Origin: Caprimulgus europaeus
Taxonomy: Eukaryota; Chordata; Aves; Caprimulgiformes; Caprimulgidae
Reading direction: 5' to 3'
Assembly: GCA_907165065.1 (NCBI GenBank)
Contig: OU015525.1
Span: 53,267,537-53,331,536 of the forward strand
DNA: 64,000 nucleotides
Shown here: one piece after another, positions 15,728-37,100 of the stretch
Layout of the letters: each line of letters starts with the position of its first letter
Position numbering within the stretch: position 1 is the first letter of the stretch
Notes under the pieces: model-generated
What the model saw: the letters and a program-made list of their open reading frames with translations, nothing else
Told to the model about the DNA's origin: nothing
The model's database searches: none
Translations under genes and position numbers: made by a program

Positions 15728-16240
15728 GTCACAGGATAGTTAGGTTTGAAAGGCATCTCTGGTCATCATTTAGTACAACTGCCCTGCAGAGAGCATGGTC
15801 AGCTACAGCAGATGGCTCAAGGCCATATCTAATGGGGTTTTGAATATCTCCAAGGATGAAGACTGCACAGCCTGTCTGGCCAATCCTCACAGTAAAAATA
15901 TAAATAAATAAATAAACAAATGTTTTTTTAATGTTTAAACATTTTCTGTGCCCATTGTCTCTTTTTCTGACACTCAGTGAACACCACTAAGAGTGAAAAG
16001 AGCTGTCTTCATTACTCCCCTTATCAGGTATTGATATACATGGACAAGATTCCCCTGAGCCTTCTCCTCAGCCTCCAGGTTGAACAATCCCAGTTCCTTC
16101 AGCATCTCTGCGTATGAGGGATGCTTCCATCCTTTAATTACTTTTCTGCCCCTTGCCCTGACTCTTTCCAGTAGCTTCATGTCTGTATTATACTGAGGGG
16201 CCTGGAGCTGGAAATGGAACTCGAAATGGAGCACTAAAAT
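15728..16240 (-). repeat. Older CR1 LINE, interrupted by (TAAA)n
   Basis: On the minus strand this follows the 3' part of a CR1 LINE. It starts (16240 side) with the block that normally reads as an 'ACTGGAGAGAGTCCAG'-like run, continues through the conserved 'AGGCTGAACAATCCCAG'-type block seen on the plus strand at about 16076-16092, and ends near 15728 in the TCACAGGAT remnant of the octamer tail. It is considerably diverged, with several small indels. A TAAA microsatellite with flanking A/T-rich DNA (about 15892-15930) sits within the element and was gained after insertion. The 86-codon minus-strand frame at 15974-16234 lies in CR1 3' sequence and is not a gene. Identification rests on remembered CR1 consensus blocks. 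Confidence 0.85.
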
Positions 16241-19200
16241 GGGATTAGCATGTTGTACCTAGTAGACTTCTACTTAATTTTCAGATGTAACAACATGTAT
16301 ACTGTAGTGCTGGTGGTCTCACTGCACATGATCCCACCCAGGGTCAAGAGAGGCTTACCAAAAACCTGCAAACATCCAAAACACCAGGGTTTTTTTGTAA
16401 TTAAAAAAAAAAAAATCCCAGATGACTAGATGACAGCTAAAACAGGTGCTATTCATATAAATCAAACAGTGCTGTCTTTATGATAGGAAATAATCTGATT
16501 GTAGTCTATGAGATAAAATGTGACTTGCACTCCAGGAAGCTAAAATGAGAAACTGTATGAGAGTGACATTGCAGACTGAGTTGGCAGGGACTTCTTGTCA
16601 TTTGTATCCCTTTGCATCTGCCTGAATTGAGTTAGTTACTCTTAGTCACCTTGCATAGATTAATATCTCCCAGGATGGCAATTCAACAACTTCCCTTTCC
16701 AGCTTTCTATAGTTCCTTTTTGTTTGTTTTTTGTTGTTGTTGTTTCAGTGTAAATTCCTTACTGATTGTTTTATTTGAATTATTCCTCCTCATCTTCTCT
16801 GCATCATCTTTGTACTTTATTAGTATGCAATAGCAAATGTCACCTTCATTCCTGACTTGATATCCTCCTTCTTCCCCTGTTTCAAGCTCTTAGATGGCAA
16901 CATTGCTTTCCTTTTTATTTTTTCCCCCCAACCTCTGCCTTCATTATTTGCATCTTTAAACAAATTCCCCAAAGCCCTATAGATTCTTGTGGGAGACTTC
17001 CTCTACTGAGCTGCTGGATTTGCATCTCTTATCTGGGACACTGTAATATTGCTTCTTGATGGCAACACAAAGAAAAAAGTTCTTTTATTAATAAGTTGAT
17101 GCCAGGCTCCACTGCGCCAAGTGGAAAAAAACCCACCATCAGTCTGGTTAAGTGGGATGTGGTGGTTAAAATAACCAACCCTCATCTACACAGTTTGCAC
17201 TATTAACTGGGAGTTAACCTGCACAGTCACTCACACTTGGATGATAGTGACTTAGAGAATCTCTTGGAAGCAGATTTCCTTTTCCTCTCCACTCTCTGAT
17301 GGACAAGAGGTTACATGAGGGAAATCTTGATTTGCCTGGAAATTATTACTGCTGTTGGAGTAGTATCAAAATAGAATATTTCTTTTGTATACTCATATGG
17401 TGCCTTCAACTGCCAATGGGGTGGGTTTCAACCAGATTATCAGACTGCACCTGAGGTACAGACAGTTCTCCCCTTCTAGAAAACTGCAATTTCCCTTTTC
17501 TCCAAAGAACTGCATTCCCCGGCATAGGGCCAGTCTGGTTGGGCCTGCACTTAAAAGCAGTAACATCTTAATCCAGCATGGCTAAATTCTTGGTGGTTCT
17601 TTTCTCATAGCCCTGAGGAAAAGCAAATAGAAGACTTTTCACAGTGGATATTTTCATTTATATCAGAATATGAATAAAAAGATGATATTGACTTCTCACT
17701 TTCTATGTAATAGGCTTTGCTGCATTTACTAACGTTATCTCCTGCTGTTAAACTATATTCTTCCTAAAGCTTAGGGGAGAACACGGGGATTTTGAAATTA
17801 GTCCTTGTTCACAAATAGTTGTGTTTAAATCTATATGATGCTCCTTAGGGAAGATAACAGCGTGGCTCTTGCCTCTCCAGTCTCCAACGGCTGAAATAAA
17901 AGAATAGTTGCACTTTCTGTCAGGAAAAAATATATTTTGTGTGTCAGAGTACTGGTTAGAACTTGAGAACTTATACACTGGGGGTGCAGGGAGAAGGCAG
18001 AAGAGATGGGGGGAGGACACTTCCCATATGGAAACTTTGAACATTGGTTTAACACATTCTCCAGAAAGCAGGTGCCACCTTACAGGATAAGTAAATTAAG
18101 TATTTAGTTAAGCAACCATCTCAGCAACTGTTTCCTTCAGATCATTGCTGGTAAACTATAGAGATATTTGCACAAATTTAGACTGACCTTAGCCATGCAG
18201 TAGGACTAAAAATTGTTTCCAGTTTTCCTTTGTTGTTGCTGTGGCCTACCAACATTCTCAATAAGAGGAAACCAAAACCAACATTTCATGGGGTCTAACG
18301 TCTGAAGATCAGGAGGGAAAAGCTGTTTTCTACATTTTCACTTGTTTGAAAGAATTTTAAACTTCAAGGGCTGGGGGAAGAATGAAGTGGGAAAATCCTT
18401 TTTTCCTCCAAATATTTTTCCTATTAAAAAGAACTGTTGAGGACACATAAAGATTACCTCAAATTCTGCTATAGAGTGAAAAACATGGAATCCTGTATTC
18501 ATTTTCTTATCAAGCCATCAGTTTAAATAATTTGCTTTCTTTAGAACAGAAGTTAAAACAGTATTCATAGTCCTATCTATGAACATACACTGATTAGGAA
18601 TCCATTGATTGTCCTCAAAGGCATGCATTCTGCATAATTGCTTAGTTCAGACTGCAGCTGGTCAGAGGTAGTAAAGATCTTAAGGGTTTGAAAACTTTAT
18701 TGAAATTTGAAGCAAAAATTCAAATAAAGCTATGTGAACTTGAGTGATGTCTGCAATCTATTTTTATAGCATACATTAAGAGTGTTTAATTGAAATATTA
18801 TTGCAAGAGAGCTACATAACCAGTAAAAAGCACCTCTTGCAAAGAGATATTAACACTTGAATACAATGACTTATTACCTAATCATGACAAAACTATCAAA
18901 TCAATTAAGTTATTCTGTACCTCTAGATCTTTACTGAATGATCACTGGATTTTAGTCATGCAGCTGAGAAATAAATTATTCATTTTAAGCCTCTTACAAA
19001 TTTCAGCTGTGGAGCCTAGTGGAGGTTTGATACGCCATGTGCCATTTTATATATACACACAGAAAACAGAAATGTCTGGATCAGCTGAGAGGACCCCAGA
19101 GTCCTGCACTTTAGAACACTTGACTTCCAGCTGTCTTGATGTTTGGCAAATTATGCAATGTCTAAATCGGCACTTGTGCTTCTGTGCATGGGAAGATCAG

Positions 19201-31440: not shown

Positions 31441-31763
31441 TTAGTGGCTATTTCAGTGGTTATATCAGCTTTCATATCAGAGTTTATGTGCAGTCTTCAT
31501 AATAGCAGAATGACCCCTCTGTCGTGGAAGTAGAACGGTTGTGCACGGCAGGAAATTGTGTGTTAGACTGCTGTGGTGGGTTGACCCTGGCTAGATACTG
31601 GGTGCCCACCAAAGCCCACTCTATCACTCCCCCTCCTCAAATGGGCAGGGGAGAAAATAATAACGAAAAGCTCGTGGGTGGAGATAAGGACGGAGAGAGA
31701 TCACTCACCAATTACTGGCACGGGCAAAACAGACTCAACTTGGGGGAAAAAAAACAAATTTAC

Positions 31764-31769
31764 TTTATT
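31764..31769 (-). terminator. LTR poly(A) signal, 3' LTR copy
   Basis: AATAAA on the minus strand within the 3' LTR, in the same context as 33241-33246. Transcripts starting in the 5' LTR would be cleaved a short distance downstream, toward 31740. Confidence 0.6.
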
Positions 31770-32020
31770 ACAAATCAAAATCAGAGGAGAATGAGAAGTA
31801 AAACCAAATCTTAAAACACCTCCCCCATCCCTCCCTTCTTCCCGGGCTTAATCTCTTTCCCGATTTTCCACCTCCTCCCCCCAGCAGCACAGGGGGACAG
31901 GGAATGGGGTTAGGGTCAGTTCATTACACGGTGTTTCTGCCGCTGCTTCCTCCTCAGGGGGAGGTCTCCTTCCCCCGCACCAGCGTGGGGTCCCTCTCAC
32001 GGGAGACAGTTCTCCACCAA

Positions 32021-32290
32021 CTGCTCCAACCTGAGTCCTTCCCATGACTGACAGCTGCTCCAGTCTGGGTCCATTCCATGGGGTGCAGTCCTTCAGGAAG
32101 GGACTGCTCCAGCGCGGGTCCCCCACGGGGTCACAAGTCCTGCCAGCAAACCTGCTCCGGCGTGGGCTCCTCTCTCCACGGGCTACAGGTCCTGACAGGA
32201 ACCTGCTCCAGGGCGGGCTTCCCGCGGGGTCACAGCCTCCTTCGGCATCCACCTGCTCCGGCGTGGGGTCCTCCACGGGCTACAGGTGGT
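32021..32290 (-). repeat. Tandem ~50-bp repeats inside the 3' LTR
   Basis: The plus strand shows CTGCTCC at 32021, 32055, 32104, 32152, 32203 and 32253, each followed by a related GGGTCC/GGGCT core and a CACGGG or GCGGGG motif. The spacings are 34, 49, 48, 51 and 50 bp. These are diverged tandem units and make up about a quarter of the LTR. The same array lies at 33498-33767 in the other LTR. Confidence 0.8.
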
Positions 32291-32708
32291 CATCTGCACC
32301 ACCATGGACCTCCAGGGGCTGCAGGGGGACAGCCCGCTTCACCCTGGTCTTTCACCACAGGTTGCGGGGAATCTCTGCTCCGGCGCCAGAGCCCATCCTC
32401 CCCCTCCTTCTTCACTGACCTTGGTGTCTGCGAAGTTGTTTTCTCTTACATCTTCTCACTCCACTCTCCAGCTGCAAAGTGTGCAGCTTTTTTTTCTCCC
32501 TTCCTTTTTTTTTTTCTTAATTATGTTATCACAGAGGCGTTACTGATTGGCTCGGCCTTGGCCAGCGGCGGGTCCCTTCTTGTAGCCGGCTGGCATTGGC
32601 TGTGTCGGGTCGGACATGGGGGAAGCTTCTGGCAGCTTCTCTCACAAAAGCCACCCCATGTCCCCTCCCCCACTGCTACCAAAAACCTTGCCATGCAAAC
32701 CCAATACA

Positions 32709-32724
32709 TTCCACCCCTCGCCTC
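32709..32724 (-). promoter_or_regulatory. Polypurine tract
   Basis: The minus strand reads GAGGCGAGGGGTGGAA directly before the 3' LTR start TGTATTGGG. This is the expected plus-strand DNA primer site of a retrovirus-like element. Confidence 0.85.
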
Positions 32725-33021
32725 TGTGAATCACATATTTAAGAATCATCACTAAAATCCACATTCATCACACAATCTTCACAAACTTCTACTCACATCA
32801 ACAGAAAAAAGAATTCCCCACACCAAAATCAAAATAACTTCATCACAACACCAGACAAAAGTGGACAATTTACACACATAATCCACCCCTTGTCTCTTCA
32901 CCACAATTAAATCGATAAAATCCCCCATAATTGTCCTACTCATCACTCTTTAGCCATGTTCGGTCTGTTTTGCCCGTTAGCTCTCCTCTCTCCGTTAATA
33001 ACCTTATCTCCAATCTCTCAT

Positions 33022-33039
33022 GCCCCACGTTGGGCGCCA
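33022..33039 (-). promoter_or_regulatory. Primer binding site, tRNA-Lys
   Basis: The minus strand reads TGGCGCCCAACGTGGGGC, an exact 18-base match to the primer binding site complementary to the 3' end of the lysine tRNA-1,2 isoacceptor. It lies 8 bases downstream of the 5' LTR end (33048). This fixes the transcriptional direction and marks the element as a Lys-primed retrovirus derivative. Confidence 0.92.
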
Positions 33040-33240
33040 AAAAAGACTGTGGTGGGTTGACCCTGGCTAGATACTGGGTGCCCACCAAAGCCCACTCTAT
33101 CACTCCCCCTCCTCAAATGGGCAGGGGAGAAAATAATAACGAAAAGCTCGTGGGTGGAGATAAGGACGGAGAGAGATCACTCACCAATTACTGGCACGGG
33201 CAAAACAGACTCAACTTGGGGGAAAAAAAAACAAATTTAC

Positions 33241-33246
33241 TTTATT
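33241..33246 (-). terminator. LTR poly(A) signal, 5' LTR copy
   Basis: AATAAA on the minus strand (TTTATT on plus), about 200 bases before the LTR's 3' end. The functional copy for a genomic transcript would be its twin at 31764-31769 in the 3' LTR. Confidence 0.55.
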
Positions 33247-33497
33247 ACAAATCAAAATCAGAGGAGAATGAGAAGTAAAACCAAATCTTAAAACACCTCC
33301 CCCATCCCTCCCTTCTTCCCGGGCTTAATCTCTTTCCCGATTTTCCACCTCCTCCCCCCAGCAGCACAGGGGGACAGGGAATGGGGTTAGGGTCAGTTCA
33401 TTACACGGTGTTTCTGCCGCTGCTTCCTCCTCAGGGGGAGGTCTCCTTCCCCCGCACCAGCGTGGGGTCCCTCTCACGGGAGACAGTTCTCCACCAA

Positions 33498-33767
33498 CTG
33501 CTCCAACCTGAGTCCTTCCCATGACTGACAGCTGCTCCAGTCTGGGTCCATTCCATGGGGTGCAGTCCTTCAGGAAGGGACTGCTCCAGCGCGGGTCCCC
33601 CACGGGGTCACAAGTCCTGCCAGCAAACCTGCTCCGGCGTGGGCTCCTCTCTCCACGGGCTACAGGTCCTGACAGGAACCTGCTCCAGCGCGGGCTTCCC
33701 GCGGGGTCACAGCCTCCTTCGGCATCCACCTGCTCCGGCGTGGGGTCCTCCACGGGCTACAGGTGGT
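33498..33767 (-). repeat. Tandem ~50-bp repeats inside the 5' LTR
   Basis: This is the counterpart of the 32021-32290 array, with units starting at 33498, 33532, 33581, 33629, 33680 and 33730. One of the two substitutions that separate the LTRs (33689) falls here. Confidence 0.8.
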
Positions 33768-34022
33768 CATCTGCACCACCATGGACCTCCAGGGGCTGCA
33801 GGGGGACAGCCCGCTTCACCCTGGTCTTTCACCACAGGTTGCGGGGAATCTCTGCTCCAGCGCCAGAGCCCATCCTCCCCCTCCTTCTTCACTGACCTTG
33901 GTGTCTGCGAAGTTGTTTTCTCTTACATCTTCTCACTCCACTCTCCAGCTGCAAAGTGTGCAGCTTTTTTTTCTCCCTTCCTTTTTTTTTTTCTTAATTA
34001 TGTTATCACAGAGGCGTTACTG

Positions 34023-34076
34023 ATTGGCTCGGCCTTGGCCAGCGGCGGGTCCCTTCTTGTAGCCGGCTGGCATTGG
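34023..34076 (-). promoter_or_regulatory. U3 CCAAT boxes of the 5' LTR
   Basis: Two CCAAT boxes on the minus strand (ATTGG on plus at 34072-34076 and 34023-34027) are followed about 20 bp downstream by the AT-rich GATAACATAATTAAG (about 33993-34007), a plausible weak TATA element. The same arrangement occurs in the 3' LTR at 32595-32599, 32546-32550 and 32516-32530. It looks like an intact RNA polymerase II promoter. Confidence 0.5.
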
Positions 34077-34190
34077 CTGTGTCGGGTCGGACATGGGGGA
34101 AGCTTCTGGCAGCTTCTCTCACAAAAGCCACCCCATGTCCCCTCCCCCACTGCTACCAAAAACCTTGCCATGCAAACCCAATACAACTGC

Positions 34191-37100
34191 AGAGCTGAAG
34201 TGAAGTTTAATTGGATGCCTATGGATACACCTAACGTATATACTAGCAAATAACTCCCCAATTTATTCCTGGGTACTTAGCTGTCCACACTGTGTAGATG
34301 CAAGTAAGCAGTACAGCTTTTTTTCTAAGTGAATGAACTACCTCTCTTTGAAGCAAAACCTTGTGTGGTTTTGGGGACCATGAGCTGCCAGGTCCCATCT
34401 GAAAGGCAGGATAAAGACAACCAGATTTGGCTCCCACTGCCCTCTTTTGCTGCAGGCTTTGCTCTCCTAGTTACCTTGTCCTGCCACACAGTGCTCCAGG
34501 GTATGTCAGACATATACTTAGGTTTCTGTCTTCCAGTTAAGATCTTCTCCTATGCCACTCACCCGAGCAGCCCTAATTTATGAGCTTACCTGATTTCTTC
34601 TTCTGTGTATATTTGCATTTTCCATCCTGCACATAGTTCTGGTGTATACCCAAATAGGAGACATTATACAGCTGTAGTCCATGCTGTAGGCATCATATTT
34701 TCATTACCTCTTCAATTCGTTTTTCCAAGGAAATTAAATAATATTTTGCATTCTGAAAGAGAATAAAAGGATGCTGGGGAGATTGAATGCAAAGCCAATG
34801 CAAATCTTGTAGAAAAATTGCTATCTACAGAGGGATCAAAAGCATGCCTGGATTTTCCACCAATCACAAGTATTACTCTGCTACCCAGCAGGCTGGGTTT
34901 AAAAGGATTTCTGTGCTCACCACTGTTTTCTCCGCTTTGAAACGGTACTCTGTCATATCTAAGTAAACATGATTTGAAGAACGGAGAGAGCAGCAAATCA
35001 AAACAGCGACAAAAAACCCATGGCATAGAAATGGGTTGCTAAAGAAACCACAGTGAATAAATTTCAGCAGAAACAATGTCAGGTATCAAATCAGAGAGAA
35101 AAACATCTTTCTTCAGGCAGTACAACATATATTGTTTTCATCCATAAACAGCAATGGCAGTTCTGTAGCTAAAGAGTTTTCTAAAATCATTCATAGAAAT
35201 GATGCAGACTCAAAATGAGTATCAAGAACATGATTCAGATGCAAGCCATAGCAAATCGTAGACTAGACTGTATCCAATATTCATTGATTCACACTGAGGA
35301 CGAACCCTGCCTTTTAAAAAGGATGTAAAATCTCTGTTCTCAGTGCCTGTTTTCCCCAGGCACTGCAGAGCAGGGCTGGTAGCAAACCCCACTTGCTCTC
35401 CAGGCCTGGGGCTCACCTGCTGCTGGCCTTTACGGGGACAGAAGCAAGAAAGCGAGTGAGCTCAGGAAGTCAGCTCATTTTAAAAGCATCTAAATCCTGC
35501 AAAGCAGATCCAGGAAAGGCTGGAAGCTGTCCCTCCTCCTATTCCTTTTTGTATTCAGGCATGTACCAGACATAATCTGGTCTAGCAGGTAATGAATTAT
35601 ATCTCAAACTGGGTGTTTGGAACAACCCATTGAAGTCTTTTCCTTATCATTACTGAGCTTTGGGTCTGGACACAAGTGAATTTCAGACACAGGACAAGGA
35701 GCTTCTTGCTTTTAAAGAAAGATATTCTGGAAAAGCAAAATTTTACTGTTAATGTGTAACTTGGACATAGCTAGCACAAAATAATAAGAAAAAATTGAAT
35801 TTGTAATAAAATGCACACTCATTTAAGTTGATCTAGTTCCTGACTGGATATGAATTAATTTCATTTCTAAGTTAAAAGAAGATACGAAGAACTAGAAAAA
35901 ATATGAAAATAATATATTTAGTGAGCCTACTTTTCAAATGTAATTAGTGAATTAGAAGTTTTGTACTTGTTTTAAATTTGATTAATTTTTTACTTTTTTA
36001 AAATAAAAAATTCCCACCTTGTGGGTTATTTAGTCACCTCCAGTTCCTTATTATGGCTGTGGATTTTATACCGAAGTATAGTAACTAACATTGATTCTTT
36101 CTTGGATCTGACTTTTATAAACTGTAATCTTCTTTCACTTCAATGAACTTTTTTTAGTTACCAAAAAATGCCTTTTTATGATTAAATACGTCTTGGGTGT
36201 TAGCCAACACAGATTTTTATTTGCTTAAGTACTTCCAAAAAGACATTAGAAAGGGATGCAAACATGGTCAACGAAAACTTTTCAATAGAAATTGTTCAAG
36301 TATTTATTGATTTTTTATTCCTTTTCATTCATTTTAAATATATGACTACTCAGCAATTGTACTTCTGTTTGTCAGTCTGGAATAGCTGTATAATACAAAT
36401 TATTTCCTCTTTTCTACTACTGAAAATTTAATTAATTATTGCAATGATACTTTAACCTTTGTAACTTCACATTTTTCCCTTGTTTCTATGCATCCCTAAT
36501 CCTCATCAAAGAAATTCAGGCAGTGATGTAAAAAAGAAAACACCTGACTAGTTTTGAGCAATTCTTTATTTAGAATTTCTCCAAAAAACAGTTATTCAGA
36601 CTGGAAGTTGCGCAGGCTAGGTGGGTAGTACAGAATGCCTTAAAAAATTGACCCAGAGAAAACACCAACATCCTAAAATACCCATGTAGTGATCACAGAC
36701 CAGATTTTCATATTTCATATTTGTCTGTTCTCTTCTGCCCCAGCATCTCGTAAACTTGAAAATGAAGAACTAAGCAGATCTATATGTTCTAGCAAAAGGC
36801 AATAAGTGATAGCCCATGGCCACTGGAGACTGTGGTAGAAAGCATTGTGTTCTTTAGAACATAAGAGCCTAGAAGAGCATTATGCTGTTCAATAAAATGA
36901 AAATCATGTCTATATATAGACCGACTGGTACCGGAAAGACTCAGCAGTTTCTGGAAACTGATGACAGTAACTAACCGCAACCTAGTGGTACAGACATGTT
37001 TTATTTTAAAATCTTTCTTGTTATGTTTTTCTTTGTCGGTTCTTCTTTTCTGTTATTTAATGCATCCATTTGTGATAACCTGTACATTTTTATGCCAACT

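What the first reader, a model, noticed from the sequence alone, without database searches (positions are those of the whole stretch)
31567..34190. Complete, very young LTR element with a gene-less 339-bp interior
The sequence shows LTRs of 1138 and 1137 bp with only two substitutions and one A-run difference, a perfect 5-bp target duplication, an exact 18-base lysine PBS, a PPT beside the 3' LTR, CCAAT boxes and AATAAA. All cis signals are intact while every retroviral gene is absent. Such an arrangement is what a non-autonomous family mobilised in trans would look like, comparable in plan to plant TRIM elements but with very large LTRs. With avian neutral rates of a few substitutions per billion years per site, two differences suggest well under a million years. 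This is my best candidate for an undescribed system in the window.
Basis: partly seen in the sequence, partly recalled or inferred. Interest (0 to 1): 0.8.

Follow-up and report, generated by a model that had tools for sequence, protein, structure and literature searches.

The report
Young gene-less bird retrovirus-like element
A recently inserted, 2.6-kb retrovirus-like element in what appears to be a bird genome keeps the DNA and RNA signals needed to be copied but no genes, so it was probably copied by proteins borrowed from a relative; such gene-less hitchhikers are already known in animals.

Summary
Observation confirmed. The window holds a complete LTR element on the minus strand: LTRs of 1137 and 1138 bp (2 substitutions, 1 A-run indel), TSD ACTGC, and a 339-bp interior with an exact tRNA-Lys1,2 PBS, a PPT and no gene.

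Added here:
(1) The LTR group occurs in birds: 9 of 120 listed hits carry names, all goshawk, crested eagle or wood stork.
(2) Part of the interior recurs elsewhere: six predicted short proteins on 8 unnamed contigs match sense positions 171-306, one from 138 or earlier, at 63-88% identity.
(3) The first ~85 nt of the interior are predicted to pair with U5 (helices of 15, 11, 11 bp; z -6.8), resembling the HIV-1 U5-AUG interaction; pairing over the AUG itself was not kept in a longer fold.

Most likely a non-autonomous deletion derivative copied in trans. A one-off deletion here is not excluded: the host-genome search did not complete (13 attempts), so copy number is unknown. Gene-less mobile ERVs are published in cattle, and a young 2.25-kb ERVK insertion in crows. 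New member of a known kind.

The parts
31567..31571 (.). target site duplication ACTGC, left copy
31572..32708 (-). 3' LTR (1137 bp), TG...CA in sense
32709..32725 (-). polypurine tract AGAGGCGAGGGGTGGAA abutting the 3' LTR
32709..33047 (-). 339-bp interior without a gene
32742..32910 (-). interior part matched by short proteins (interior sense 138-306): P0121-P0126 match 171-306; 138-170 is matched by P0122 alone, perhaps from 118. In this copy the matching reading frame is interrupted in its last third
32910..32962 (-). stretch (interior sense 86-138) where a 5'/3' deletion junction is predicted to lie if the interior is a fusion of parental ends (inference)
32963..33012 (-). leader with three arms (interior sense 36-46, 53-63, 71-85) complementary to U5; an ATG follows at 32955-32957
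33022..33039 (-). primer binding site, 18 of 18 match to the tRNA-Lys1,2 PBS
33048..34185 (-). 5' LTR (1138 bp)
33155..33210 (-). U5 arms complementary to the leader (sense LTR 976-990, 1010-1020, 1021-1031), with a splice-donor-like GGTGAGTG between them at 33178-33185
33241..33246 (-). AATAAA of the 5' LTR (sense LTR 940-945); with the TATA-like site this implies an R of roughly 0.75 kb (inference)
33581..33764 (.). imperfect tandem repeat of period 99 inside the LTR (the other LTR has it at 32104-32287)
33991..34002 (-). TATA-like AT-rich site (sense LTR 184-195), candidate core promoter
   Evidence: function inferred
34023..34027 (-). CCAAT box
34072..34076 (-). CCAAT box
34186..34190 (.). 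target site duplication ACTGC, right copy

Best explanation
This is a non-autonomous endogenous-retrovirus derivative that was inserted as it stands. Its LTR gives promoter, R, U5 and polyadenylation signal. The transcript is packaged by way of the leader and its duplex with U5, primed by tRNA-Lys1,2 at the PBS, second-strand primed at the PPT, and integrated with a 5-bp duplication. Gag, protease, reverse transcriptase and integrase come in trans from a full-length relative. The interior is most simply a fusion of a relative's 5' leader with its 3' end. Shown: the anatomy, the near-identity of the LTRs, and the existence of relatives of LTR and interior. Inferred: transcription, packaging, helper, and insertion in the already shortened form.
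For: Intact TSD, LTRs, PBS and PPT with no gene found. The LTRs are nearly identical. Interior 171-306 matches 6 of 6 candidate short proteins, on 8 contigs, diverged from one another, so this sequence is not unique to the locus. The matching frame is interrupted here although the LTRs suggest almost no change since insertion, so the source copy probably lacked it too (inference). U5-leader pairing: a 15-nt exact run, reached by 1 of 400 shuffles of the interior; fold of 316 nt z -6.8 against 100 shuffles. Mobilisation of gene-less ERVs is shown in cattle (passages).
Against: No second copy of the whole 339-bp interior was seen: none in the window, none in interior-directed scans of viral contigs and genome contigs, none by blastn of the element in phages and plasmids. 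These collections are not bird genomes, so this is weak. The six short proteins may come from 3' ends of full-length proviruses; the search admits only proteins 0.55-1.75 times the query length, so longer proteins with this end could not appear, and the sources of the six are unnamed. The weak pairing over the AUG in the 316-nt fold is replaced by another pairing in the 1263-nt fold. No helper was identified.
Confidence: 0.6

Rival explanations
1. A full-length provirus lost gag-pol-env by one internal deletion, after it inserted here or during the reverse transcription that made this insertion. The short interior is then a one-off.
For: Internally deleted proviruses are common (general knowledge). 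The interior can be read as a 5' leader joined to a 3' end, with the junction confined to about 50 nt. No second whole copy was found.
Against: The deletion would have had to spare leader, 3' end, PBS and PPT within the short time that the LTRs allow. The frame in the 3' part is already interrupted. The collections searched are not bird genomes.
Confidence: 0.3
2. The interior carries a small gene: the 44-66 aa frame seen in six relatives encodes a short hydrophobic peptide that the family keeps, and the element is a one-gene transposon rather than a gene-less one.
For: The six predicted proteins and the window frame share 16 invariant positions, including LILVWGI.
Against: Only open frames can enter a protein collection, so openness in the six is selection bias. 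Lengths vary by indels, the window copy is interrupted, and no Pfam family was found for it.
Confidence: 0.07
3. Assembly artefact: a duplicated LTR or collapsed repeat with no biological element.
For: Long near-identical repeats can mislead assemblers (general knowledge).
Against: A perfect TSD at the outer ends, PBS and PPT at the right interior ends, and three differences between the LTRs.
Confidence: 0.03

Closest known systems
Cattle ERVK[2-1-LTR] D-type elements (PMC10924933; passages seen, with parts of the abstract)
   Same: ERVs without functional genes, recently mobile; the authors propose that competent relatives supply the machinery in trans.
   Different: About 6.8 kb beside a ~10-kb competent form, so a far longer interior. 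De novo insertions were observed there; here mobility is inferred.
Crow corCorLTRK1b insertion upstream of NDP (PMC7341801; passages and one section seen)
   Same: Young bird LTR element far shorter than a usual provirus (2.25 kb) with two similar LTRs, dated by LTR differences.
   Different: LTR 296 bp, hence an interior of about 1.66 kb (subtraction). The word non-autonomous does not occur in the main text. No sequence comparison made here.
TRIM and LARD elements of plants (mentions seen in PMC5718144, and TRIM in PMC8616336; sizes recalled)
   Same: LTR pair, PBS and PPT without genes; non-autonomous.
   Different: TRIMs have LTRs of a few hundred bp at most and a small total size; LARDs have multi-kb interiors (recalled). 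Here 1.14-kb LTRs flank a very small interior, in an ERV-like element.
Chicken EAV-HP and ART-CH (passages seen in PMC4607243; further anatomy recalled)
   Same: Avian retroelements; [quoted passage not shown]
   Different: No sequence comparison was made here.
HIV-1 U5-AUG interaction (PMC5035962; passages seen)
   Same: U5 pairs with the leader near an AUG, and the structure takes in the splice-donor region; linked to dimerisation and packaging.
   Different: Here it is a prediction from one sequence; the strong helices end 5 nt before the AUG, pairing over the AUG is weak and depends on the stretch folded, and no gag gene follows.

Membership tests
LTR retroelement (endogenous-retrovirus type) | two LTRs with TG...CA ends, TSD, PBS, PPT | tested here: met
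LTR retroelement (endogenous-retrovirus type) | retroviral genes in relatives with the same LTR | not testable with these tools
   no DNA of relatives could be fetched; host genome search unanswered (13 calls)
Avian LTR group with this LTR | LTR sequence similarity | tested here: met
   208 proteins of 904 candidates with E<=1e-3 to an antisense LTR frame; 9 of the 120 listed bear names, all of 3 bird species; lineage looked up for two of the three
ERVK (class II) | lysine tRNA primer (association recalled) | tested here: met
   exact tRNA-Lys1,2 PBS; suggestive only, primer use varies
ERVK (class II) | 6-bp target duplication (songbird LTRs are put in superfamilies by TSD length, PMC6523648; the value 6 is recalled) | tested here: not met
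   TSD is 5 bp; one family with both 5 and 6 bp is reported. Superfamily left open
ERVK (class II) | pol phylogeny | not testable with these tools
   no pol in the element
Non-autonomous ERV family mobilised in trans | no coding capacity with intact cis signals | tested here: met
Non-autonomous ERV family mobilised in trans | several dispersed copies of the same short interior | tested here: inconclusive
   six relatives of part of the interior, DNA context and organism unknown
Non-autonomous ERV family mobilised in trans | a full-length partner sharing LTR ends, PBS and PPT | not testable with these tools
   no bird genome was reachable
TRIM | short LTRs (about 100-250 bp) and very small total size (recalled) | tested here: not met
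   LTRs 1137 and 1138 bp, total 2614 bp
TRIM | PBS and PPT present, no genes | tested here: met

The most novel reading that the evidence does not exclude
A still-active, dispersed avian family of minimal retroviral parasites: 1.14-kb LTRs around a 339-bp interior reduced to a U5-paired packaging leader plus the 3' end, spreading in trans at the expense of full-length relatives across several bird lineages.
Probability: 0.35. Interest if true: 0.55.

Novelty: new member of a known kind. Interest (0 to 1): 0.38.

Why it matters
If the family reading is right, the element is close to a natural minimal substrate for retroviral copying: about 100 nt of leader, the 3' end and two LTRs. Its copies would show which sequences a retroelement must keep to be mobilised in trans, and would allow a test in birds of the idea, put forward for cattle, that gene-less copies outcompete and exhaust the competent ones. 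If it is a one-off deletion it is ordinary.

Tried and rejected
Host genome: the genome search 'own' with the interior was sent 13 times and never answered, so copy number in the host is unknown.

DNA relatives of the LTR: viral contigs by an exact 23-base pattern, an LTR frame (6 stretches matched a pattern, none confirmed) and a 4-row alignment (17, none confirmed); genome contigs (38, none confirmed). Of the interior: viral contigs by an exact 25-base PBS-leader pattern and two alignments (26, none confirmed; 46; 25, none confirmed); genome contigs (57, none confirmed). blastn of 31500-34250 in phages and plasmids: no match.

LTR-encoded gene: each LTR holds a 143-aa sense frame, and an antisense frame of 235 aa (left LTR, running into the interior) or 242 aa (right LTR, running into the flank). 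The sense frame and the 235-aa one, tested from the left copy, have no Pfam family above cut-off; they lie partly in GC-rich tandem-repeat DNA and are read as non-coding. Rfam at gathering threshold: 0 matches in the window.

Literature: no paper of the library holds the 19 LTR bases searched. Searches on bird or non-autonomous LTR elements listed no title on an element with this plan, but beyond listings only the passages and sections named in this report were seen. Papers opened and not used as evidence: PMC11009239, PMC4992247, PMC8310711, PMC3185528, PMC5383398, passages only. Repbase and Dfam were not available, so 'undescribed' is not claimed.

TRIM membership rejected on LTR length. ERVK or ERVL left open, since primer and TSD length disagree.

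Pairing over the AUG is no longer claimed as stable.

Full report
Anatomy. The sequence at 31567-34190 is a complete LTR element read on the minus strand. From its 5' end: TSD ACTGC (34186-34190), 5' LTR (33048-34185, 1138 bp), an 8-nt spacer, PBS (33022-33039), rest of the interior, PPT (32709-32725), 3' LTR (31572-32708, 1137 bp), TSD ACTGC (31567-31571). The LTRs differ by two substitutions and one unit of an A run. The PBS is identical to the 18-mer given for tRNA-Lys1,2 in PMC8775094 (passage). CCAAT boxes, a TATA-like site and one AATAAA lie in the order expected of a promoter and a polyadenylation signal. The distance between TATA-like site and AATAAA implies an R of about 0.75 kb and a U5 of about 0.18 kb (inference). 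No sense frame inside the interior exceeds 56 aa, and 5 frames of the element gave no Pfam family above its cut-off.

Age. Two substitutions over 1137 bp give 1.17 My with the rate printed in the chicken ERV paper PMC2329609 (part 1 of 2 seen), 0.056 My with the rate printed in the crow paper PMC7341801 (section seen; that paper counts 1-bp indels too, which gives 0.083 My for 3 differences), and 0.46 My with a recalled avian rate of 1.9e-3 per site per My. Poisson 95% ranges for two substitutions are 0.14-4.2, 0.007-0.20 and 0.06-1.7 My. Young, but the figure depends on the rate. By eye, one substitution fell in each LTR, each judged from a single relative (P0001 and P0072).

Relatives of the LTR. 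An antisense frame of the LTR finds 208 predicted proteins (E<=1e-3, 904 candidates; 120 listed). Of the 120, 9 carry organism names: Accipiter gentilis, Morphnus guianensis, Mycteria americana, all birds (lineage looked up for the last two). The frames are not taken as genes; they show that this LTR group is spread among birds and is not new as a group. The host of the window is not stated; a bird is inferred from this.

Relatives of the interior. The 56-aa sense frame found one short protein. The two together found 6 proteins, all 6 candidates including the first, on 8 contigs in all, labelled lgn or jgi and without organism names; the longest contig of each runs from 1464 to 10355 bases. 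Identity to the window frame is 63 to 88% over 43 to 70% of it. By tblastn the six cover interior sense 171-306; P0122 reaches back to 138 in frame and perhaps to 118 in a shifted frame. In the window copy the matching frame is interrupted in its last third; the relatives differ from one another by indels. So this part of the interior is a recurring, diverged sequence. Whether the relatives are short elements or 3' ends of proviruses cannot be told: their DNA could not be fetched, and the search admits only proteins near the query's length.

Leader. A 15-nt exact complementarity between U5 (sense LTR 976-990) and the leader (interior 71-85) was matched by 1 of 400 dinucleotide-preserving shuffles of the interior. 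A fold of 316 nt from AATAAA to interior 118 has z -6.8 against 100 shuffles and 63 pairs between LTR and interior, among them helices of 15, 11 and 11 bp. These three persist in a fold of 1263 nt from a presumed start site to the end of the interior. Two further 3-bp helices over the ATG at interior 91 in the shorter fold do not: there that piece of U5 pairs with interior 115-127 instead. The arrangement resembles the U5-AUG interaction of HIV-1, which is linked to dimerisation and packaging (PMC5035962, passages). It is one sequence, the region was chosen after seeing the repeat, and covariation could not be tested. It still suggests that the first ~85 nt are a working 5' leader.

What it is. 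Leader and matched part nearly tile the interior; a fusion point, if there is one, should lie in about 50 nt (interior 86-138, window 32910-32962). The simplest account is a deletion derivative that kept what copying in trans needs. It may have moved in this form (my preference, 0.6) or been shortened at or after this one insertion (0.3). The decisive test, copies in the host genome, was sent 13 times and never answered. Ten searches in collections that are not bird genomes do not replace it.

Compared with what is known. ERVs without functional genes that dominate new insertions, while the number of competent copies sets the rate, are shown in cattle (PMC10924933, passages). A young 2.25-kb ERVK insertion with 296-bp LTRs is described in crows (PMC7341801). 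Chicken EAV-HP is believed to spread with a helper (PMC4607243, passage). The plan resembles plant TRIMs, but the LTRs are several times too long for membership (TRIM sizes recalled). The 5-bp TSD and the lysine primer point to different ERV superfamilies under the usual conventions (recalled; classification by TSD length in PMC6523648, section 3 part 1 of 2 and section 3.4 seen), and that paper reports one family with both 5- and 6-bp duplications. The finding is therefore a new member of a known kind; its small interior and long LTRs make it a neat but not surprising example.

Noticed in passing
32954-32977 with 33196-33219 (and 31720-31743): Inverted complementarity between leader and U5 (24 nt, 88%), which extends into three predicted helices between U5 and the first 85 nt of the interior.
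   Followed up: partly
33178-33185: Splice-donor-like GGTGAGTG inside U5, between the arms that pair with the leader; a simple acceptor pattern found no site in LTR or interior.
   Followed up: no
32104-32287 and 33581-33764: Imperfect tandem repeat of period 99 (1.9 copies) inside each LTR, within the inferred long R region.
   Followed up: no
31851-32279 and 33328-33756, minus strand: A 143-aa open frame in sense inside each LTR; no Pfam family for the left copy; probably chance in GC-rich DNA.
   Followed up: partly
15977-16258, minus strand: 94-aa open frame that resembles, from recall, a CR1-type LINE or other retroelement fragment; Pfam gave only a sub-threshold match.
   Followed up: no
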